NCBI RefSeq assembly: GCF_003633755.1
Contig: NZ_RBIL01000001.1
Coordinates: forward strand, 3,643,426-3,707,425
Length of the DNA: 64,000 nucleotides
Direction: 5' to 3'
Source of the DNA: Solirubrobacter pauli
GTDB lineage: Bacteria > Actinomycetota > Thermoleophilia > Solirubrobacterales > Solirubrobacteraceae
Each line of letters begins with the position of its first letter. The stretch's first letter is position 1. The notes beneath the pieces were generated by a model. It searched no databases and was not told the DNA's origin. It worked only from the letters and a program-made list of their open reading frames with translations. Of this stretch, positions 8,918 through 26,493 are shown one piece after another. Position numbers and translations under genes: made by a program.

Positions 8918-9019
8918 CAGTACGAGTCCTCCTGGTGAGGTTTGCCACGTGTTGAGCCACCGTAGCGGCTTCACCGGACGACCACAACCGGCATCTGCTC
9001 AACGTGAACTTAAGACGAG

Positions 9020-9778
9020 CTACACCGGGTTGGAAAGGTCCACGAAAACGTGTTCCACCCCAAACCGGTCCGCCAAGAGGTCGCCGAGCGCGCGCACGCC
9101 GAAGATCTCGGTGGCGTAGTGACCGGCGGCCACAAAGGAAATTCCCAGCTCCTCCGCGTCTGCGGTGATGTGCTCGCGCGGCTCTCCGGTAAGAAATGCG
9201 TCGAGACCCAGCGCGGCCGCCTCGTGCAGCGTGTCAGCAGCAGAACCCGACACGATCCCAATGGTGGAGATCACCTGATCGCGCTGGCCGAGGAGGAGAG
9301 GCTCGCGGCCGGTCACCGTGGAGACACGTGCGGCCAGCTCGTCCGGCGTGATCGGCTCCGGGAAGCGTCCGCGGCTGCCGATCGGCCGGCCCTTGTAGCT
9401 GCCGAACGGCTCGCGGTCCACGCAGCCGAGCTGCTTCACGAGCAGTGCGTTGTTGCCCACCTCCGGGTGCGCGTCGAGCGGGAGGTGGTAGGCGGCGAGG
9501 TTGATGTCGTGCTTGAAGAGCGGCCGCAGGCGCTCGGCCAGCAGCGGCGTCAGGCCGGTGGGATGGAACTTCCAGAACAGGCCGTGGTGGACGAGGACCA
9601 GCTCGGCCCCCAGCTCGACCGCGCGCTCGTGCAGCTCCCGGCGCGCCGTCACCCCTGTCACGACCCGTGTGATCTCGGTGGCGCCCGGCACCTGGAGGCC
9701 GTTCGGTCCGAGGTCGTCGAAGTCCCCGGGACGCAAGAGCTCGTCGAGTGTGGACAAAATGTCGGTTATCTGCGCCAT
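9020..9778 (-). CDS. Nif3-like dinuclear metal centre protein (GTP cyclohydrolase 1 type 2 family)
   Basis: A member of the conserved NIF3/YbgI family, which forms hexameric rings with a two-metal site and whose physiological reaction is not settled. The 252-aa protein has the characteristic PNGLQV segment, the metal-binding VHHGLFW, the AAYHLPLDAH element, and the C-terminal AGHYATEIFG that completes the metal site. It starts at ATG 9778. The neighbouring sigma-fusion gene is divergently transcribed from the other side of a 114-nt gap. No GTP cyclohydrolase pathway genes are nearby, so that activity should not be assumed. Confidence 0.9.
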   Translation of the reverse strand: MAQITDILSTLDELLRPGDFDDLGPNGLQVPGATEITRVVTGVTARRELHERAVELGAELVLVHHGLFWKFHPTGLTPLLAERLRPLFKHDINLAAYHLPLDAHPEVGNNALLVKQLGCVDREPFGSYKGRPIGSRGRFPEPITPDELAARVSTVTGREPLLLGQRDQVISTIGIVSGSAADTLHEAAALGLDAFLTGEPREHITADAEELGISFVAAGHYATEIFGVRALGDLLADRFGVEHVFVDLSNPV

Positions 9779-9892
9779 CGGGTTTGCGGGGTTGGACTTC
9801 GGGCGATCAGGATCTGAGTCGTCCAGACCCCGGCTGTCAGGGGCCGGGTGGACGTGGTGAGTAGATCAGAGTCCGCGCAGGAGGACCTCCAG

Positions 9893-11701
9893 GTGGGTAG
9901 GGGAATGAGCGGCGCCGCCCAGGTGCCGGCTATCGAGGGTGCTGGAAGCCCCGCGGACGACGATCAGAAGCTGGTCGCGCGTGTGCGGCGCGGCGACGAT
10001 CGCGCCTTCGAGCTCCTCTACGAGCGCTACCACCGGCGGATCTACGCGTACGTGCTTGGGATGGTCAAGGACCACGGCCGTGCCGAGGACGTCACCCAGG
10101 AGGTGTTCCTCTCCGCGCTGCGGCGGATGCGGGAGACCGAGCAGCCGCTGGCGTTCAAGCCCTGGCTCTACCAGATCGCCAAGAACTCCTGCATCGACGC
10201 GTTCCGCCGCTCCAAGCGCGCGGAGGAGGTCTCCTACGACGCCGACGGCGGCCTCGCACCCGCCGACCACTCCAAGCTCGTCGCCTCCGGCGCGTCCCCC
10301 GACGCGGCCGTGGCCGCCAAGCAGGACCTGGACAGCCTCTGCGGCGCGTTCGGCGGCCTCTCCGAGACCCACCACGAGATCCTCGTCCTGCGTGAGCTCG
10401 AGGGCCTGAGCTACGCCGAGATCGGCCGCCGCATGGGCATGAGCCGGCCGGCGGTGGAGTCGACGCTGTTCCGCGCCCGCCGGCGGCTGAGCGAGGAGTA
10501 CGACGACATCGTCTCCGGTGCCCGCTGCCTGCGGATCCAGAGCATCATCGCGATGGCGGTGCAGTCGCGGCCGGGGGCGCGCGACACGCGCCGGCTCGCC
10601 CGCCACCTCTCGCACTGCCAGCCGTGCCGGCGTGAGGCGCTCGCCGCCGGGCTGGACCGCGAGCTGTTCGGCCGCCCGTCGGTGCGCGAGCGCGTGGCCA
10701 ACCGGATCGCGGGCATCCTGCCGTTCCCGATCTTCGCCAAGTTCCGGCGCGAGGCCGACACGGCCGCCGCGTCCGCGCCGCCGAGCGGCCGCGGTGCCGC
10801 GTTCATGCAGCAGCTGCCGTTGCTCTCCGACCACCTCCAGAGCGGCTGGGGCAAGGCGGCCGCGGGTGCGGCCGTGCTGGTCGCGAGCGTCGGTGCGGGC
10901 GTGGGCGTCCAGCGGGTGACGAGCGCGCCGAGCGAGTCGGCGGCGGTGGAGTCGCCGGCGCGCAGCGCGTCGGCCGCACCCGCCCGGACCGCGACGGCGA
11001 CCGCCACCAGCACGCCGACCGAGCGCGCCGACGCCGACGCCGCGGGTGGCGGCGCCGCGCCCAAGGCACGCAAGGGCGGCGACTCCGGCGGGGCCAAGCG
11101 GGTCACCGGGCGCGACGGTGACGTGGCCGGAGCGGCACCGCGCGCCGGCAAGGGTGGCTCGGGCAGTGGGGGCGGTGGGGGCGGCACCCAGCCGCCGACC
11201 GCGAACGCGCCCGGCACGCCGGTCGTGGCCGCCGGTTCGAATCCCGACGACACGTCCGAGCGCAAGACCGAGAAGCCCGCGACCTCCGAGCCCACGCCCA
11301 CGGCCAGGAAGAAGCCTTCCCAGCAGGTGAAGGAGGACGTCACCAAGGCCACCGAGCCCGTCCGCGAAGTGGTCAAGCAGACCACCGACGGCGTGCAGCA
11401 GACCGTCGAGAAGACGACGGACACCGTGCAGCAGACGACCAACCAGGTCACCGAGGGCGTCAACGACGTCACGCAGCAGACGACGCAGACCGTCGACGAC
11501 ACCGTGAAGACCGTCACCGGCCCCGGCCCGGTCGCCGACACGGTCGACAAGACCACCGACAAGGTCGACAAGATCGTCGACGGCACGACCAAGACGACGC
11601 AGAAGATCGTGGGTGGCGTGCTCTACACGATCGACGCCACGACCGGCCGCGTGATCAACACGGTGCAGCTCGTCGCGGGGGCTCCGAAGCCGAGTGGCTA
11701 G
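9893..11701 (+). CDS. ECF sigma factor fused to zinc-finger, membrane helix and extracytoplasmic tail
   Basis: This 602-aa protein would direct RNA polymerase to a stress regulon while tethered to the membrane. GTG 9893 is chosen because AGGAGG (9879-9884) lies 8 nt upstream; GTG 9848 and ATG 9905 are alternatives. Sigma region 2 covers about residues 35-105 (YERYHRRIYAYVLG, EDVTQEVFLSALRRM) and region 4 about 150-205 (LSYAEIGRRMGMSRPAVEST). An anti-sigma-like HxxxCxxC zinc motif follows (H238, C242, C245). One hydrophobic helix lies near 320-340, then a long Ala/Gly/Pro/Thr-rich segment and degenerate TTDxVQQT-type repeats. It therefore looks like sigma and membrane-bound anti-sigma in one chain. 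Related fusions are known among actinobacterial ECF groups. A second copy of this architecture is at 24537-25991. Confidence 0.88.
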   Translation: MGRGMSGAAQVPAIEGAGSPADDDQKLVARVRRGDDRAFELLYERYHRRIYAYVLGMVKDHGRAEDVTQEVFLSALRRMRETEQPLAFKPWLYQIAKNSCIDAFRRSKRAEEVSYDADGGLAPADHSKLVASGASPDAAVAAKQDLDSLCGAFGGLSETHHEILVLRELEGLSYAEIGRRMGMSRPAVESTLFRARRRLSEEYDDIVSGARCLRIQSIIAMAVQSRPGARDTRRLARHLSHCQPCRREALAAGLDRELFGRPSVRERVANRIAGILPFPIFAKFRREADTAAASAPPSGRGAAFMQQLPLLSDHLQSGWGKAAAGAAVLVASVGAGVGVQRVTSAPSESAAVESPARSASAAPARTATATATSTPTERADADAAGGGAAPKARKGGDSGGAKRVTGRDGDVAGAAPRAGKGGSGSGGGGGGTQPPTANAPGTPVVAAGSNPDDTSERKTEKPATSEPTPTARKKPSQQVKEDVTKATEPVREVVKQTTDGVQQTVEKTTDTVQQTTNQVTEGVNDVTQQTTQTVDDTVKTVTGPGPVADTVDKTTDKVDKIVDGTTKTTQKIVGGVLYTIDATTGRVINTVQLVAGAPKPSG

Positions 11702-11704
11702 ACT
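11699..11704 (+). promoter_or_regulatory. -10 box TAGACT for tRNA-Pro, using the sigma gene's stop codon
   Basis: TAGACT begins with the TAG stop of the sigma-fusion gene and lies 10 nt before the mature tRNA 5' end at 11715, a good position for a tRNA promoter. Confidence 0.55.
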
Positions 11705-11714
11705 GCTTCCCGTT

Positions 11715-11788
11715 CGGGGCGTGGCGCAGCCTGGTAGCGCGCACCGTTCGGGTCGGTGAGGTCCCGAGTTCAAATCTCGGCGCCCCGA
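11715..11788 (+). tRNA. tRNA-Pro (anticodon CGG)
   Basis: A complete 74-nt cloverleaf can be folded by eye. The acceptor stem CGGGGCG pairs with CGCCCCG, with discriminator A at 11788. The D arm is GCGC/GCGC with loop AGCCTGGTA. The anticodon stem CACCG/CGGTG holds loop TTCGGGT, anticodon CGG. The T arm is CCGAG-TTCAAAT-CTCGG. It decodes CCG, the dominant proline codon in such a GC-rich genome. The 3' CCA is not encoded. Confidence 0.97.
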
Positions 11789-11822
11789 TGGAAGACGGTC
11801 CTTTTGACCCGAGAAGGACTCA

Positions 11823-11850
11823 CGAAGGCCCCGCCCCGGCGGGGCCTTCG
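11823..11850. terminator. Strong hairpin between tRNA-Pro and uspA
   Basis: CGAAGGCCCCGCC at 11823-11835 is the exact reverse complement of 11838-11850, giving a stem of about 12 bp with a 4-nt loop. It separates the tRNA-Pro gene from the convergent uspA stop at 11857. There is no clear U tract on the plus strand (TCGTTCTC follows), so it may act in both directions as a GC-rich intrinsic terminator. Confidence 0.75.
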
Positions 11851-11856
11851 TCGTTC

Positions 11857-12360
11857 TCAGCCCGTGAGCGGGAAGACGTCCAGCGAGCTCGCCGGCGCGG
11901 GTGCGGGCGCGACCGCCGGCTCCTCGGACGCGGCGCGCGTGAGCAGCACCGGGATCGGGCTCGCGTGCAGGACCTTCTGGGACACGCAGCCGAGCAGCGA
12001 CTGGTGCAGTCGGCCGTGCCCGTGCGAGCCCATCACGATCAGGTCGAACGCGCCGGAGCGGGCGCGTTCGATCAGCGCCTTGGCCGCCGGGCCCTCGACG
12101 AGGAGCGTGGTGACGCTGATGTCCGCGGGCAGCGAGGCGGTCGCGTGGCGGAGCAGCTCGGTGTAGTGCTTGACGACCTCGTTGCGCGGCGGCGCGGCGC
12201 CCGTGGCCAGCAGGGCGGTCGCCGGGATCGGCGGGATCGCGGTCAACAGCGTGAGACGGGCGTGCTGATCGCGGGCCAGAGCGGACGCGTGCGCGAGGGC
12301 GGCGTCGCCGTCCGGCGAGCCATCGACCGCCACCAGGATGTTGCGGTAGACGCTGCTCAT
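11857..12360 (-). CDS. Universal stress protein (UspA family)
   Basis: A single-domain cytoplasmic Usp of 167 aa starting at ATG 12360, with GGAGAGG just upstream as ribosome-binding site. The opening ILVAVDGSPDGDAAL is the conserved first strand and loop. The ATP-binding G-rich pattern is visible in GSHGHGR followed by the downstream Gly and the IPVLL strand. ATP-binding Usps act as dormancy and stress sensors, which is family knowledge. A minus-strand TATAGT (12384-12379) could be its -10. The C-terminal 20 residues are Ala/Pro-rich and variable. The gene runs toward the tRNA-Pro terminator. Confidence 0.9.
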   Translation of the reverse strand: MSSVYRNILVAVDGSPDGDAALAHASALARDQHARLTLLTAIPPIPATALLATGAAPPRNEVVKHYTELLRHATASLPADISVTTLLVEGPAAKALIERARSGAFDLIVMGSHGHGRLHQSLLGCVSQKVLHASPIPVLLTRAASEEPAVAPAPAPASSLDVFPLTG

Positions 12361-12449
12361 AGAGCCTCTCCAGACGCGACTATAGGCCCAGCGTAGGCGA
12401 ACCGCGTGGGTACTTGACCCCAACTATGCGCCCGGTGAGGTTCGCCCAC

Positions 12450-12455
12450 TAGTCT
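12450..12455 (+). promoter_or_regulatory. -10 box TAGTCT of the Lrp/AsnC gene
   Basis: TAGTCT is 7 nt before ATG 12463 with no ribosome-binding site between, consistent with leaderless transcription. Confidence 0.6.
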
Positions 12456-12462
12456 GCCGCGC

Positions 12463-12933
12463 ATGATCGACGGGCTGGACTCCCGGCTGCTGCTGACGCT
12501 GCGGTCGAATCCGCGGATCGGGCTCGTGGAGGTCGCACGGCGCCTCGGGGTCGCGCGCGGCACCGTGCAAGCGCGCCTCGACAAGCTCGTGGCCCGCAAC
12601 GTGATCACCGGCTTCGGGCCCGAGTGCGAGCCCGCCGAGATGGGCTATCCCGTGCTGGCGTTCGTGGCGCTGGAGATCGTCCAGGGCCGGCTCGACGAGG
12701 CGATCGAAGGCCTCCGGCGCGTCCCGGAGGTGCTCGAGGCACACGGGGTGACCGGCAACAGCGACATCCTCTGCCGGGTCGTGGCGCGCGACAACACGCA
12801 TCTGCAGGACGTGATCAACGCGATGCTGCACACGGGTGCGGTCCAGCGCTCGACGAGCTCGATCTCGATGACGCGGCAGATCCCCTACCGCATCGACCCG
12901 CTGATCAGGGCCGCGGGCGCAGACGCGCCGTGA
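12463..12933 (+). CDS. Lrp/AsnC-family transcriptional regulator
   Basis: A feast/famine-type regulator of 156 aa. The N-terminal winged HTH reads LDSRLLLTLRSNPRIGLVEVARRLGV then ARGTVQARLDKLVARNVI. The C-terminal RAM/ligand-binding domain (about residues 65-140) has the VTGNSDILCRVVARD core. Such proteins usually bind amino acids or related metabolites and form octamers. The target is unknown. The convergent gene is a histidine kinase (29-nt overlap) and uspA is divergent, so autoregulation from the 102-nt gap is possible. Confidence 0.9.
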   Translation: MIDGLDSRLLLTLRSNPRIGLVEVARRLGVARGTVQARLDKLVARNVITGFGPECEPAEMGYPVLAFVALEIVQGRLDEAIEGLRRVPEVLEAHGVTGNSDILCRVVARDNTHLQDVINAMLHTGAVQRSTSSISMTRQIPYRIDPLIRAAGADAP

Positions 12934-14084: not shown

Positions 14085-14603
14085 TTGACGCTCACGCCCC
14101 CCTTCATCCGCAGCTACGACCACTTCGTCGGAACCGAGGGCCCGGTGCTCGTGCTCTTCGGCGACTACGAGGACCCCGCGTCCGGCGCCGCCCACCGCGG
14201 CGTCACCGCCCTGCGCGAGCGCTGGGACGGCTTCGTCTACGCCTGGCGGCACCTCCCGATGGCCGAGGAGCACCCGAACGCCAACGGCGCCGCGCTCGCG
14301 GCCGAGTGCGCCGGTGCGCAGGACTCGTTCTGGGCCTTCCACCACGTCCTGCTCGCGCGCCAGGAGGCGCTCTCGGTGCCGGATCTCCTGAACTACGCGG
14401 CGCAGATCGGCATCGACGTCGCGACGCTGATGGAGGACATGATGGACGAGCGCCACGCCGACCGGATCGTCGACAACATCCGGTCCGCGGTGGACTCCGG
14501 GGTGCGTCACGCACCCGCGGTCTTCATCGAGGGCGTGCGCTGGGAGGGCGGCACCGATCCGGACGCGCTGGAGGGCGCCCTGCGTGCAGCCCTGGCCGGG
14601 TGA
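14085..14603 (+). CDS. DsbA-like thioredoxin-fold protein lacking the CxxC motif
   Basis: A 172-aa thioredoxin-fold protein closest in pattern to the DsbA-like domains of actinobacteria, including those fused to NhaA antiporters. The core VLVLFGDYEDPASGAAH aligns with the usual FGDYxCPxC segment, but both active-site cysteines are absent. The helical insert (AAECAGAQDSFWAFHHVLL) and SGVRHAPAVFIEGVRWEGG, with the cis-Pro equivalent, are retained. It is therefore probably not a disulfide oxidoreductase. Start is uncertain: TTG 14082 or 14085, 9-12 nt after TACGGT (14067-14072). It overlaps the next gene by 20 nt. Confidence 0.72.
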   Translation: MTLTPPFIRSYDHFVGTEGPVLVLFGDYEDPASGAAHRGVTALRERWDGFVYAWRHLPMAEEHPNANGAALAAECAGAQDSFWAFHHVLLARQEALSVPDLLNYAAQIGIDVATLMEDMMDERHADRIVDNIRSAVDSGVRHAPAVFIEGVRWEGGTDPDALEGALRAALAG

Positions 14604-15795
14604 GGTCCTCGAGGAGCGTGCGGGTGAGATCGCGGTCGGCTTCGCCGCGCTGTTGACGCGGCAGGCCGCCTGGCGCCACCGCCGCGTGGAGACGATCGAC
14701 GTGCTCTCGCACGAGCAGGTGCGGCGCTCGGTGTCGGTCGACTTCACGGTCCCGCTCGAGCACCGCGGGGAGTTGGCGCTCGGCGACGGTCAGTGGGTCG
14801 TCCCGCTCGCCGTGCTCGACAAGCGCAAGCTCGTGCACTTCGACCTGCTCGGCGAGGACGGCTACGCGCTGCCGCTGATGCGGTCGGACGAGGTGCAGGT
14901 GATCGCGCGCGAGCTGCTGTACATGGTCCTGGACCTCGACCTGGACGGCGCCGAGCTGGACTTCGACGCCGGCGACCTGATCGAGCGGGTGCTCGCCGCG
15001 GGCCCCGAGGACGGTCCGGCCGTGCATCCGCGCGTGGCCCAGGTGGCCGACCGCGCGCCGGAGTTCGCCGCGCTCGCCACCACGCTGACGAGCGGCTTCC
15101 TGCTGTGCGCGGTGCTCTCGGACGTCAGCCGCCGGCGCGTGGTCAAGTTCGCCTACGACGAGCCGCTCGGCCGGCCGGACCGGTTCTCGCACTTCTACGG
15201 CACGCAGGGCTGCAGCGAGGCCGCGAGCTACCACGTCGAGCTCAGCGTCCCCGACGGCATGCGCGCCCGCAGCGCCGACATCGTCGACAACCGGACCGGC
15301 GCGCTGCTGTTGGAAGGCCCGCACGACTCCGACCGGCCCGGCCTGCACTACGTCGCCGGTGCCGAGGCGAGCGAGGAGCCGGGGCTGAGCGTCCGCTACG
15401 CCACCGAGCGCGGCGGCTTCCTCGTCCCGGCGATGCTCGTCTCCTGGGTGATCGCGGCGGAGCTCGGGTTCGCGGCGCTGTTCGCGGACCTGCACGGGAT
15501 CGCGACGACGGGCGGCCCGGCGGTCGCCGTGCTGCTGTCGATCTCGGCCGTGTTCTCGAGCCTCGTGCTGCGCGCGGGCGAGCATCCGCTGGTCCAGCTC
15601 GTGCTCGCGCCGTACCGGATGCTGCTGGGCACGGCGACGATCATGGCCGTGCTCGCGGGTGCCGTGCTCGCGTTCCGCGGTTCGCCCACGCTGCTGGACC
15701 TGACATGGGGCATCGGCGCCATTGTGGCCGTGGTCGTGGCAGGTATCCTGTCCATTGAGGTCGCCCGCGCGCCGGCGACCGCCAAACGCCCATGA
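14584..15795 (+). CDS. Hypothetical protein with four C-terminal membrane helices
   Basis: A 403-aa protein not recognised. Residues 1 to about 275 look soluble, with an acidic segment rich in LDLDLDGAELDFDAGD. Four hydrophobic helices follow, beginning at FLVPAMLVSWVIAAEL, AVLLSISAVFSSLVL, MLLGTATIMAVLAGAVL and WGIGAIVAVVVAGIL. The soluble part has strand-rich segments such as YHVELSVPDGMRARSADIVD that could form a beta-sandwich. GTG 14584 is used; it overlaps the preceding DsbA-like gene, and the end overlaps the next gene as ATGA, so the three are probably co-translated. Confidence 0.7.
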   Translation: MQPWPGEVLEERAGEIAVGFAALLTRQAAWRHRRVETIDVLSHEQVRRSVSVDFTVPLEHRGELALGDGQWVVPLAVLDKRKLVHFDLLGEDGYALPLMRSDEVQVIARELLYMVLDLDLDGAELDFDAGDLIERVLAAGPEDGPAVHPRVAQVADRAPEFAALATTLTSGFLLCAVLSDVSRRRVVKFAYDEPLGRPDRFSHFYGTQGCSEAASYHVELSVPDGMRARSADIVDNRTGALLLEGPHDSDRPGLHYVAGAEASEEPGLSVRYATERGGFLVPAMLVSWVIAAELGFAALFADLHGIATTGGPAVAVLLSISAVFSSLVLRAGEHPLVQLVLAPYRMLLGTATIMAVLAGAVLAFRGSPTLLDLTWGIGAIVAVVVAGILSIEVARAPATAKRP

Positions 15796-24536: not shown

Positions 24537-25991
24537 TCAGCCGCCGGTGGGCGGCGCGGTCGTGCCGCCGCTCGCCGGCGGTGCGACCGTCCCACCGTCG
24601 CTCGCGGGCGGCGCCGGCGTCTGGACCGCCGTGTCGGCCGGGGCGGGGGTCGCCGTGGCGGGCGGCGTCTCGACGGCCGGCGCGGGCGTCTGGGCCGGGG
24701 TCGGCGTCGCGACCGGGGAGGCGTCCGGGGCGCGGGCGCCGCCGGTCTCGACCTGCGGGTCGGCGGCCACGGCGGGCGCGTCGTCGGCCGGGGCGGCCTT
24801 GGAGTCCTCGGGCTTGGCGATCGTCGCGGAGAGGGTCTTGTCCTTCTCGGCCGTGGCGGCGGCGTCGCGCTTCTTCTCGCGCGCGGCTTCCGTGACGGTC
24901 GCGGTGACCGGCGCCGGGCTCGTCGTGATCGGCTGCGGGCGGCTCTTGGCGGCCACGACCACCGGCGCCTCGACGGCGGGCGGGGCGGAGGTCTTGTGGT
25001 GGGTGCTCGCCTTCTCGGTGGGCGCCGGCGCGGGCTTGTGGTCGACGATCTTGTGCTGGACCTCGACCGCGCCGCCCGTGGCGATCGCGGCGGTGCACAC
25101 GACCGCGGCGACCTTGCAGGCCGTGACGGTCGCGACGCCACCGCCGGCGGCCGCGCCACCCGCGGCGGCGCCGCCGGCCGAGCCGCCGACGCCGATCACC
25201 TTCGCGGCGAGCGCGAACGGGGCGAACCCGATCGGCGCGAGCGCGGCGAACGAGCGCTTCATCCCGCGCAGCGCGCCGCGGTACTCGCGGCACGAGTCGC
25301 ACGACTTCATGTGCTTGCGCGCGCGGCCGGACGCCTTCACGCCGCGGTCGTAGGAGCGCAGGAGGTCGGCCTGGATCTCGGCGCAGTCGGCGTCACGGGC
25401 CTCGGCGGCCTCGACGAGCCCGACGCGGGCACGGACGAGCAGCGACTTGACGGCGGGAACGGTGACGTCCAGCGCGGCCGCGAGGTCGGCGTACGTCATG
25501 CCGTCGATCTCGCGCATGAGCAGGGCGGACCGCTGCTGCTCGGGCAGGTTGGCGACGTCGACCACCAGCTGGCGCAGGTCGTCGCGGCGCTGGGCCTCCT
25601 CGACCGGGTCGTGCAAGGGCTTGCGCGAGACCTCGAAGACCTCGGCCGCAGGTGGGATCGGCCGGCGCAGGTGGTCGATGCAGCGGTTGTGCGCGACCCG
25701 GTAGAGCCACGCGCGCACGTTCATCTCGCGGTTGTCGTTGCGCAGGGCGCCGTACGCGCGGACGAAGACGTCCTGCAGCACGTCCTCGGCGTCCTGGCGC
25801 GAGCTCGCCGACAGCATCTGGCGGACATACGCGAACAGACGCTGGCGGTAGCGATCATGCAGGACGCGGAAGGCCTCGTCGTGACCACCGCGGAACAACG
25901 CGAGGAGCTGCTCATCAGAGCGCAACCGCAGCAGCGACCCACCGAGCGGCAGGCGCGATAAAGCTGGTGCGTGGACTGCTGAGGCTTCCAT
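24537..25991 (-). CDS. Second ECF sigma factor fused to zinc finger, membrane helix and proline-rich tail
   Basis: A 484-aa relative in design of the 9893-11701 protein. ATG 25991 is supported by AGGAG (26004-26000) 8 nt upstream. Sigma region 2 (YRQRLFAYVRQMLS, EDVLQDVFVRAYGAL) and region 4 (LPEQQRSALLMREIDGMTYADL, TVPAVKSLLVRAR) precede an HxxxCxxC motif (H227, C231, C234). One hydrophobic segment (about 286-309) is followed by about 175 extracytoplasmic residues rich in Pro, Ala and Thr. Upstream a minus-strand GGAAC (26052-26048) stands 17 nt from GTTACAGTC, resembling an ECF promoter and suggesting autoregulation; a TACAGT (26034-26029) could also serve the main sigma factor. Confidence 0.86.
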   Translation of the reverse strand: MEASAVHAPALSRLPLGGSLLRLRSDEQLLALFRGGHDEAFRVLHDRYRQRLFAYVRQMLSASSRQDAEDVLQDVFVRAYGALRNDNREMNVRAWLYRVAHNRCIDHLRRPIPPAAEVFEVSRKPLHDPVEEAQRRDDLRQLVVDVANLPEQQRSALLMREIDGMTYADLAAALDVTVPAVKSLLVRARVGLVEAAEARDADCAEIQADLLRSYDRGVKASGRARKHMKSCDSCREYRGALRGMKRSFAALAPIGFAPFALAAKVIGVGGSAGGAAAGGAAAGGGVATVTACKVAAVVCTAAIATGGAVEVQHKIVDHKPAPAPTEKASTHHKTSAPPAVEAPVVVAAKSRPQPITTSPAPVTATVTEAAREKKRDAAATAEKDKTLSATIAKPEDSKAAPADDAPAVAADPQVETGGARAPDASPVATPTPAQTPAPAVETPPATATPAPADTAVQTPAPPASDGGTVAPPASGGTTAPPTGG

Positions 25992-26082
25992 GGATAGGGC
26001 TCCTGACGCTGCCGTCCCAGCGACTGTAACTGTAGGGGTCGAAAGAAGTTCCGCCCTATAGGTGTGATCTCCACTCCCCCTT

Positions 26083-26493
26083 GTGACCGATTCTCTACGC
26101 ATTCGTGACGGACTTTCCTTGCCGATCTCGGAAATCGAGATCAGGGCTTCGCGTTCCTCCGGCCCGGGTGGTCAGCATGCGAACGTCACGGCGTCGCGGA
26201 TCGAAGCCGTCTTCGACGTGCACAAGTCGGACACTCTCGACCAGTTTCAGAAAGACCGCATAAGTGCCAAGCTCGGCCCGCGGGTGACCGCGGTCGCGCA
26301 GGACGCCCGCTCGCAGGCCCGCAACCGGGAGCTCGCGCTCGAGCGGCTCGCCCGCCGGCTCGAGCAGGCGCTGCACGTGCAGCGGCCGCGGACCAAGACC
26401 AAGCCGAGCGCGGGAGCGAAGCGCCGGCGGCTCGAGGACAAGAAGCGACGCTCCCAGACCAAGCAGAACCGGCGGCGCTACTCGGACGACTGA
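26083..26493 (+). CDS. arfB: Peptidyl-tRNA hydrolase ArfB / release-factor-like ribosome rescue protein
   Basis: A 136-aa protein that would free stalled ribosomes lacking a stop codon. The catalytic GGQ motif is at residues 29-31 within SSGPGGQHANVTASRIEAVFDV, read as two pieces around the GGQ. The codon-recognition domains of true release factors are absent. The C-terminal tail is strongly basic (KTKPSAGAKRRRLEDKKRR), as needed to enter the empty mRNA channel. GTG 26083 is used; no ribosome-binding site is evident. It is divergent from the sigma-fusion gene across 91 nt. Confidence 0.9.
   Translation: MTDSLRIRDGLSLPISEIEIRASRSSGPGGQHANVTASRIEAVFDVHKSDTLDQFQKDRISAKLGPRVTAVAQDARSQARNRELALERLARRLEQALHVQRPRTKTKPSAGAKRRRLEDKKRRSQTKQNRRRYSDD

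What the first reader, a model, noticed from the sequence alone, without database searches (positions are those of the whole stretch)
9893..11701. Sigma factor covalently joined to a zinc-finger/transmembrane anti-sigma-like module
Region 2, region 4, HxxxCxxC, one membrane helix and a long extracytoplasmic tail in one chain imply a membrane-tethered sigma factor, perhaps released by proteolysis. The tail has degenerate TTDxVQQT repeats like LEA or apolipoprotein helices, possibly a surface or envelope sensor.
Basis: partly seen in the sequence, partly recalled or inferred. Interest (0 to 1): 0.6.

Follow-up and report, generated by a model that had tools for sequence, protein, structure and literature searches.

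The report
Sigma factor fused to membrane anti-sigma
This soil-actinobacterium gene makes one protein that joins a gene-switching sigma factor to its own zinc-containing brake, a probable membrane anchor and a helical outer tail; such fusions are already known, but this genome has many of them and this tail is unusual.

Summary
Window 9893-11701 is one 602-codon frame in a Solirubrobacter-like genome. It encodes ECF sigma regions 2 and 4, a class-I-type zinc anti-sigma domain, one marginally hydrophobic probable membrane helix, a disordered linker and an amphipathic 11-residue-repeat tail. It is not a frameshift: other assemblies carry it, in a 21-row, all-fused clade (support 99*, quick tree). 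The genome has at least seven further fusions of this kind, one in this window. Profiles tie the zinc segment to anti-sigma factors. AlphaFold folds it well locally; the compact sigma arrangement is only weak support. Best reading: a sigma factor inhibited in cis, tethered to the membrane, released by proteolysis. That is proposed in print for ECF48/52/53 and was shown for IutY. Membrane location, cleavage and regulon are inferred, not shown. The unusual part is the tail: amphipathic periodicity is significant in 8 of 16 orthologues and 0 of 17 paralogues. Verdict: a real, lineage-specific variant of a known kind.

The parts
9880..9884 (+). probable ribosome-binding site GGAGG before the GTG start
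   Evidence: sequence; kept upstream of the start in L031 and L032
9893..11701 (+). CDS of the fused sigma/anti-sigma protein, 602 aa
   Evidence: open frame; start and frame kept in orthologues
10016..10219 (+). sigma-70 region 2
   Evidence: Pfam PF04542 E 1e-17; AlphaFold helices in blocks mostly over 90 pLDDT
10355..10489 (+). sigma-70 region 4
   Evidence: Pfam PF08281 E 3.7e-13
10520..10645 (+). anti-sigma-like three-helix zinc domain; ligand codons C 10526, H 10604, C 10616, C 10625
   Evidence: AlphaFold helices 210-224, 229-239, 243-251, blocks of mean pLDDT 90-96 up to residue 250
10682..10765 (+). conserved IAxLLPxPxF segment, candidate helix 4 (the sigma-contacting helix of class I anti-sigma domains)
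   Evidence: invariant P277 in 12 rows, that Pro nearly invariant (90% or more) in 33 rows; helices with block pLDDT about 56-80; role inferred from position
10856..10912 (+). probable single membrane helix AAAGAAVLVASVGAGVGVQ after W-G-K
   Evidence: hydropathy 1.66; a hydrophobic segment in 16 of 16 and W-x-K at its start in 14 of 16 complete orthogroup members, not L126 and L135 (read by eye)
10919..11287 (+). low-complexity Ala/Gly/Ser/Thr/Pro linker, predicted disordered
   Evidence: composition; pLDDT mostly under 50
11297..11581 (+). amphipathic tail with degenerate 11-residue repeats
   Evidence: period 3.6, 0 of 2000 shuffles; lag 11 z 4.8; long helix 488-541 predicted, block pLDDT 76-83 from 491
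11594..11668 (+). small three-strand C-terminal element (LYTIDATTGRVINTVQLV)
   Evidence: AlphaFold strands 568-573, 576-581, 587-592; similar sequence in L031 and L117

Best explanation
A one-protein transmembrane signalling switch. The N-terminal ECF sigma factor is held inactive by the zinc anti-sigma domain that follows region 4 in the same chain. The chain then crosses the membrane once (N-terminus in), spans the wall with a disordered linker and exposes an amphipathic helical tail. A change at the envelope acting on the tail would allow a first cut outside, then an intramembrane cut and cytoplasmic clean-up, freeing sigma for RNA polymerase. Shown by sequence: single chain, sigma regions, anti-sigma-type zinc motif and profile kinship, conserved hydrophobic segment, amphipathic tail. 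Inferred: membrane insertion, inhibition in cis, proteolytic release, envelope sensing.
For: Sigma r2/r4. Anti-sigma profiles: 28 of 33 segments match NCBIfam NF052368 and 13 of 33 RsrA; zf-HC2 20 of 33; a PDB profile search ranks RsiW (E 0.012) and ChrR (E 0.2) first and second. Four zinc ligands kept. AlphaFold: anti-sigma helices well folded locally; in the sigma+ASD model (pTM 0.57) the two-domain superposition is 6.5 A on CnrH:CnrY and 7.0 A on SigW:RsiW, against 18.5-24.2 A on RNAP-bound sigmaE, SigE, SigH and SigL. No anti-sigma gene among the neighbours examined: NIF3 (divergent) and tRNA-Pro adjoin it and are kept in orthologues. Topology: a fused paralogue in the same genome ends in a bacterial SH3_3 domain (E 1.2e-7), and similar 11-residue Thr/Val repeats occur in a protein that by eye has a signal peptide and a C-terminal hydrophobic anchor. 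The genome has three M50 (site-2-type) protease matches, which does not discriminate since 14 of 14 control genomes have them. Published precedent: ECF48/52/53 and IutY.
Against: The hydrophobic segment is marginal (1.66; 4 of 16 orthologues under 1.6) and AlphaFold gives it low confidence. The window's own zinc segment scores below Pfam's cut-off (E 0.035 and 0.05) and the PDB profile E-values are weak. AlphaFold's compact arrangement has no sigma-only control; a sigma factor listed without a partner, SigG1, superposes nearly as well (7.8 A, 127 residues), and other anti-sigma-bound ECFs fit less well (1or7 9.7 A, AlgU 10.5 A, BldN 12.7 A, SigK 13.0 A). No protease, signal or regulon was identified.
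Confidence: 0.6

Rival explanations
1. Inhibited in cis but switched by a conformational change without cutting: the zinc site or the tail changes state and the tethered sigma binds polymerase at the membrane, as in soluble fused ECFs such as CorE or ECF41.
For: A review describes C-terminal extensions that act by conformational change. The zinc ligand set is kept and zinc anti-sigma factors can be redox sensors (passages).
Against: The conserved hydrophobic segment and long exported-type tail would be unnecessary; fused zinc-plus-TM groups are expected to work by proteolysis.
Confidence: 0.19
2. A soluble fusion: the Ala/Gly/Val segment is not a membrane helix and the tail is a cytoplasmic disordered or scaffold region.
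For: Hydropathy is near the limit and pLDDT there is low.
Against: The hydrophobic segment is kept in the orthogroup. Seven own-genome fused paralogues have a post-finger stretch of 1.67 to 2.07, though in L002 and L004 the best stretch is the one just behind the finger, so only five speak for the later helix. One paralogue has an SH3_3 tail; similar repeats occur in an exported-looking protein.
Confidence: 0.13
3. The anti-sigma module has lost inhibition; the protein is a constitutively active, membrane-placed sigma or a wall-binding protein with a vestigial sigma part.
For: Nothing here shows inhibition directly.
Against: Zinc ligands and the LPxPxF segment are kept in the orthogroup, and sigma r2/r4 are well conserved.
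Confidence: 0.06
4. Artefact: two genes joined by a frameshift or misassembly.
For: None found.
Against: Same single frame in other assemblies and coding-like codon-position GC in sigma, middle and tail parts.
Confidence: 0.01

Closest known systems
ECF52 sigma factors (SCO4117, Streptomyces coelicolor)
   Same: One chain with ECF sigma, zinc finger, membrane region and long low-complexity extracytoplasmic part; actinobacterial.
   Different: No carbohydrate-binding family reported by Pfam here; the tail is an amphipathic 11-residue repeat. No ECF52 protein was compared directly and group assignment could not be run.
ECF48 and ECF53 sigma factors
   Same: C-terminal fusion of zinc finger and one or two membrane helices, extensions up to 400 residues (review text).
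   Different: No member was compared directly; relation of the sigma parts is unknown here.
IutY of Pseudomonas putida (ECF243)
   Same: Sigma and membrane anti-sigma functions in one protein; the worked-out case of activation by Prc and RseP.
   Different: IutY belongs to iron cell-surface signalling; no iron or receptor family among the six neighbouring genes tested here.
Class I zinc anti-sigma domains (RsiW, ChrR, RsrA)
   Same: Helical zinc domain with HxxxCxxC, best profile relatives.
   Different: Here fused behind its sigma factor, with Cys rather than (by recall) His as first ligand.

Membership tests
ECF sigma factor | sigma-70 regions 2 and 4 close together, over curated cut-offs | tested here: met
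   PF04542 64.1 bits (cut-off 24), PF08281 49.3 bits (25.7)
Class I zinc anti-sigma domain | upstream ligand plus H-x3-C-x2-C | tested here: met
   C212, H238, C242, C245 kept in window, L031-L034 and paralogues
Class I zinc anti-sigma domain | match to curated anti-sigma or zf-HC2 profiles over cut-off | tested here: inconclusive
   Window segment below cut-offs (zf-HC2 14.2-14.6 of 22.2 bits; RsrA 14.4 of 62.5); as a set 28 of 33 match NF052368 and 20 of 33 zf-HC2 at E up to 1
Class I zinc anti-sigma domain | three-helix bundle plus separate helix 4 that contacts sigma | tested here: inconclusive
   Three helices and two later helices predicted; coordinates and contacts were not available; the domain was not folded or searched alone
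ECF48/ECF52/ECF53 (fused zinc-finger, membrane ECFs) | sigma, zinc finger and one or more membrane helices in one chain | tested here: met
   the membrane helix by hydropathy only, and marginal
ECF52 | C-terminal carbohydrate-binding domain after a proline-rich stretch | tested here: not met
   No carbohydrate-binding family among the 18 Pfam families at E up to 1; the linker is 10% Pro and the end is an amphipathic repeat
ECF48/ECF52/ECF53 | assignment by the ECF classification models | not testable with these tools
   ECF Hub models not available; the classification paper is not held
RIP-activated sigma/anti-sigma (IutY type) | site-1 and site-2 cleavage releases sigma | not testable with these tools
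   Needs experiment; M50 proteases are present but also in 14 of 14 controls
Apolipoprotein / LEA | homology to the family | tested here: not met
   PF01442 23.6 bits against a cut-off of 90, no LEA family listed; only the 11-residue amphipathic periodicity is shared

The most novel reading that the evidence does not exclude
The tail itself is the sensor: an exported, largely unfolded 11-residue-repeat chain that folds into an amphipathic helix on contact with exposed lipid or on drying, as LEA and apolipoprotein repeats do (recalled), and this folding exposes or shields the cut site. The protein would then be a single-component envelope-damage or desiccation sensor with a sigma factor as its output, a sensing principle I have not seen described for ECF sigma factors in the papers I read.
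Probability: 0.12. Interest if true: 0.75.

Novelty: new variant of a known kind. Interest (0 to 1): 0.45.

Why it matters
Fused sigma/anti-sigma proteins are simple one-gene transmembrane switches, yet by the 2022 review read here only IutY's proteolytic activation had been characterized by experiment. A genome that holds at least eight of them, with different outer tails on one common inner plan, is a natural comparison set for how sensing is swapped. The amphipathic-tail orthogroup, at a fixed chromosomal place, is a specific and testable case of a possible lipid- or dryness-responsive sensor.

Tried and rejected
Frameshift or misassembly: rejected by orthologues. One family locus, L132, has its finger out of frame in a draft genome; I counted it as uninformative, not as a loss of the fusion.

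Kinship to apolipoproteins, phasins and similar: rejected as low-complexity matches below cut-off.

A 5' stem-loop upstream of the start: z -1.24, 22 of 200 shuffles as good, and not clearly kept: dropped. Promoter and terminator consensus scan of 9700-11900: none found. Rfam on 9000-12500: the tRNA, and a sub-threshold istR match (24.2 of 45 bits) over and beyond the tRNA that I ignored.

Viral relatives: 2 weak sigma matches only. Plasmids: 719 records, all under 60% identity; the 8 listed are at 28-31% and 5 of them are annotated as sigma factors.

Fold search of the anti-sigma part: the rows of both models are filled by the sigma domains, so no anti-sigma fold match was obtained; its absence says nothing.

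Careful tree: not finished; the quick tree is reported, with 46 of 131 inner branches open and several long branches. It places the 'fused' label with 3 changes, so a single fusion origin is neither shown nor excluded.

One search scanned one strand only and gave a wrong picture of the own-genome paralogues; one search replaced it.

Literature searches on Thermoleophilia or Solirubrobacter sigma factors: searches gave no papers; one search gave 94, of which the 20 listed have 0 occurrences of 'solirubrobacter'. This library lacks most subscription papers, and the 2021 ECF re-classification is not held, so prior classification of this group is possible.

Odds: after re-reading I lowered the best explanation from 0.62 to 0.60 and raised two rivals by 0.01 each, because SigG1, listed without a partner, is about as compact.

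Full report
What is there. The window is G000:C1:3643426-3707425 of a 7.1 Mb genome in 4 contigs. The nearest named relative of the gene found is in Solirubrobacter phytolaccae (L031, 76% identity in the best segment); next come Candidatus Solirubrobacter pratensis (L032, 53%) and two MAGs, L033 (49%) and L034 (61% over a shorter part). S. phytolaccae belongs to Thermoleophilia, Solirubrobacterales. The gene 9893-11701 is one open frame of 602 codons. Its GTG start has GGAGG ahead of it, and the start is kept in L031 and L032.

Anatomy. Pfam finds sigma-70 regions 2 and 4. Directly after region 4 lies a helical zinc domain with ligands C212, H238, C242, C245 (numbering from the GTG). All four are invariant in 12 aligned fused proteins: the window, four orthologues and seven paralogues of the same genome. 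The seven paralogues had been picked for HxxxCxxC; the orthologues had been found by similarity alone. About 30 residues further on is a conserved IAxLLPxPxF segment in which one Pro, P277, is invariant in the same 12 rows. Then come a linker, a hydrophobic segment, a low-complexity linker and the repeat tail. The hydrophobic segment scores 1.28 to 2.05 in the 16 complete orthogroup members, 12 of them at 1.6 or more, and starts with W-x-K in 14 of 16 (motif read by eye).

The anti-sigma module. The window's own zinc segment is below Pfam's cut-off (14.6 of 22.2 bits). As a family the evidence is better. I cut out 34 zinc segments, all picked by the motif C...HxxxCxxC, so their four ligand columns are invariant by choice; left out before were L118 and L127 (repeats of L031 and L034), L120, L129 and L133 (cut by contig ends), L132 (broken frame) and L007 (shorter spacing). 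NCBIfam's anti-sigma family NF052368 matches 28 of 33 (best E 1.7e-6) and RsrA 13 of 33; Pfam zf-HC2 matches 20 of 33 (best 3.5e-7). A profile search of the PDB ranks RsiW first (E 0.012) and ChrR second (E 0.2, again at 0.29); the other rows, from E 0.24, are unrelated proteins. The literature describes class I anti-sigma domains as a three-helix bundle plus a helix 4 that holds most of the predicted contacts to sigma (passages of PMC7406223). I read the LPxPxF segment as the likely helix 4, by position only.

Structure models. AlphaFold on the whole protein (42 rows) gives block means over 90 for most of the sigma domains and for the zinc-domain helices, mostly under 50 for the linker, 46-47 around the hydrophobic segment, and a long tail helix (488-541) with block means of 76-83 from residue 491. 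A second model of sigma plus zinc domain (45 rows) has mean pLDDT 87.1 and pTM 0.57. Its two sigma domains superpose on anti-sigma-bound ECFs at 6.5 A (CnrH:CnrY, 139 residues), 7.0 A (SigW:RsiW, 136), 9.7 A (sigmaE:RseA, 163), 9.7 A (RpoE:NepR, 148), 10.5 A (AlgU:MucA, 163), 12.7 A (BldN:RsbN, 126) and 13.0 A (SigK:RskA, 147). On RNAP-bound ECFs they superpose at 18.5, 23.9 and 24.2 A (SigE of M. tuberculosis), 23.0 A (SigL), 23.2-23.8 A (SigH) and 23.3 A (sigmaE). SigL:RslA, SigE:ChrR and ShbA rows cover one domain only. This fits a closed state. But SigG1, listed without a partner, superposes at 7.8 A over 127 residues, and no sigma-only control was run, so the closed state need not be due to the zinc domain. 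It is weak support.

Not an artefact, and vertically inherited. In a draw of 41 genomes of the family, 32 have some match at E 1e-25 and 20 (own included) have a match at E 2.4e-48 or better. Of the 19 family loci L117-L135, 17 have the finger in frame with sigma (L131 with a longer loop, read by eye), L132 has it out of frame and L133 is cut by the contig end. L118 and L127 look like the same species as L031 and L034, so these are not all independent. In a draw of 119 genomes of the class (candidates scored capped at 22 a genome), 11 match at E 1e-40: nine in the same family, own included, and two in another family of the same order; both of the latter, L155 and L156, are fused too. Among the 76 other sigma loci fetched by similarity (L035-L110; the fetch kept the best 80 of 496), 0 carry HxxxCxxC or a stretch over 1.6 behind the sigma part. 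A quick tree of 134 sigma parts puts the window in a 21-row clade, support 99*, all fused. The upstream divergent NIF3 gene is kept in the four orthologues L031-L034, and the downstream tRNA-Pro(CGG) in the three whose contig reaches it.

A habit of this genome. Of the 37 matches to the protein in this genome, the 30 fetched loci were scanned: eight proteins, the window's included, have sigma, HxxxCxxC and a hydrophobic stretch of 1.66 or more in one frame, and one more (L016) has the stretch without the finger. In L002 and L004 the most hydrophobic stretch is the segment just behind the finger, not the later one. One of the eight, L009, lies in this window on the minus strand. One paralogue, L004, ends in a bacterial SH3_3 domain (E 1.2e-7). 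That places its tail outside the membrane, by what such domains usually do (general knowledge).

The tail. Residues 484-578 (numbering from 9848) show a hydropathy period of 3.6 (0 of 2000 shuffles as strong) and identity peaks at lag 11 (z 4.8), with weaker ones at 7, 22, 4 and 15. In the last 130 residues, the strongest 29-residue helical moment beats 300 shuffles at p under 0.005 in 8 of 16 complete orthogroup members. Dropped before that count: L120, L127, L129, L133, L134 and L034 (ended by a contig end), L118 (repeat) and L132 (broken). Three of the eight (window, L031, L117) are near relatives. The same test gives 0 of 17 paralogues (eight of this genome, L016 included, and nine of the family; L141 dropped, cut) and p 0.007 and 0.000 for the two order-level orthologues L155 and L156. 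For eight tails picked by eye the period is 3.53-3.75. So an amphipathic tail is a feature of this orthogroup, though half its members have other tails. A search of the genome with the tail found one other protein under E 0.01 with comparable repeats (E 3.1e-4; weaker matches at E 0.07 to 0.9 were not followed); by eye it starts with a signal-peptide-like stretch and ends with a hydrophobic anchor.

How it most likely works. I take it as a cis-inhibited, membrane-tethered sigma factor released by proteolysis. The review I read in part (section 3.5, part 1 of 2, and the figures and tables section of PMC8999054) says that ECF48, ECF52 and ECF53 are expected to be regulated by proteolysis and carry such zinc-finger and membrane fusions, and that IutY is the only one where this activation has been characterized by experiment. 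Passages of PMC5826349 describe ECF52's SCO4117; passages of PMC7593790 describe IutY. The own genome has three M50 matches, but so do all 14 control genomes. The weakest step in my chain is membrane insertion, where the hydrophobic segment is marginal; next is the trigger, on which there is no direct evidence.

Membership and novelty. The protein is built, and probably works, like the ECF48/52/53 kind. It lacks ECF52's carbohydrate-binding domain, and I could not run the ECF classification. I call it a new variant of a known kind: the inner plan is known, while I saw no description of the amphipathic repeat tail or of so many fusions in one genome in the listings of my searches or in the passages and sections I read. 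Those searches cover only open papers.

Noticed in passing
window 24540-26171, minus strand (L009): A second fused sigma / HxxxCxxC / hydrophobic-segment protein in the same window, with a Pro/Ala-rich tail and no significant amphipathic periodicity.
   Followed up: partly
window 11714-11789, + strand: tRNA-Pro(CGG) starts 12 bases after the sigma stop codon; the gap is 19, 34 and 258 bases in L031, L032 and L033. No terminator-like site found between them, so co-transcription is possible.
   Followed up: partly
L147 (G000:C1:2930196-2930570 region, minus): An exported-looking protein (by eye) with long 11-residue Thr/Val/Ala repeats and a C-terminal hydrophobic anchor.
   Followed up: partly
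L003 and L004 (own genome, C1): Two fused paralogues seem by eye to share a Cys-containing outer segment instead of a repeat tail; L004 adds an SH3_3 domain.
   Followed up: no
L016 (own genome, C1:1119949): A sigma factor fused to a strongly hydrophobic segment (2.49) but without the zinc finger: perhaps a member that lost its anti-sigma motif.
   Followed up: no
window 14584-15792, + strand: 403-aa open frame with hydrophobic stretches near its end (by eye), no Pfam match at E 0.001.
   Followed up: no
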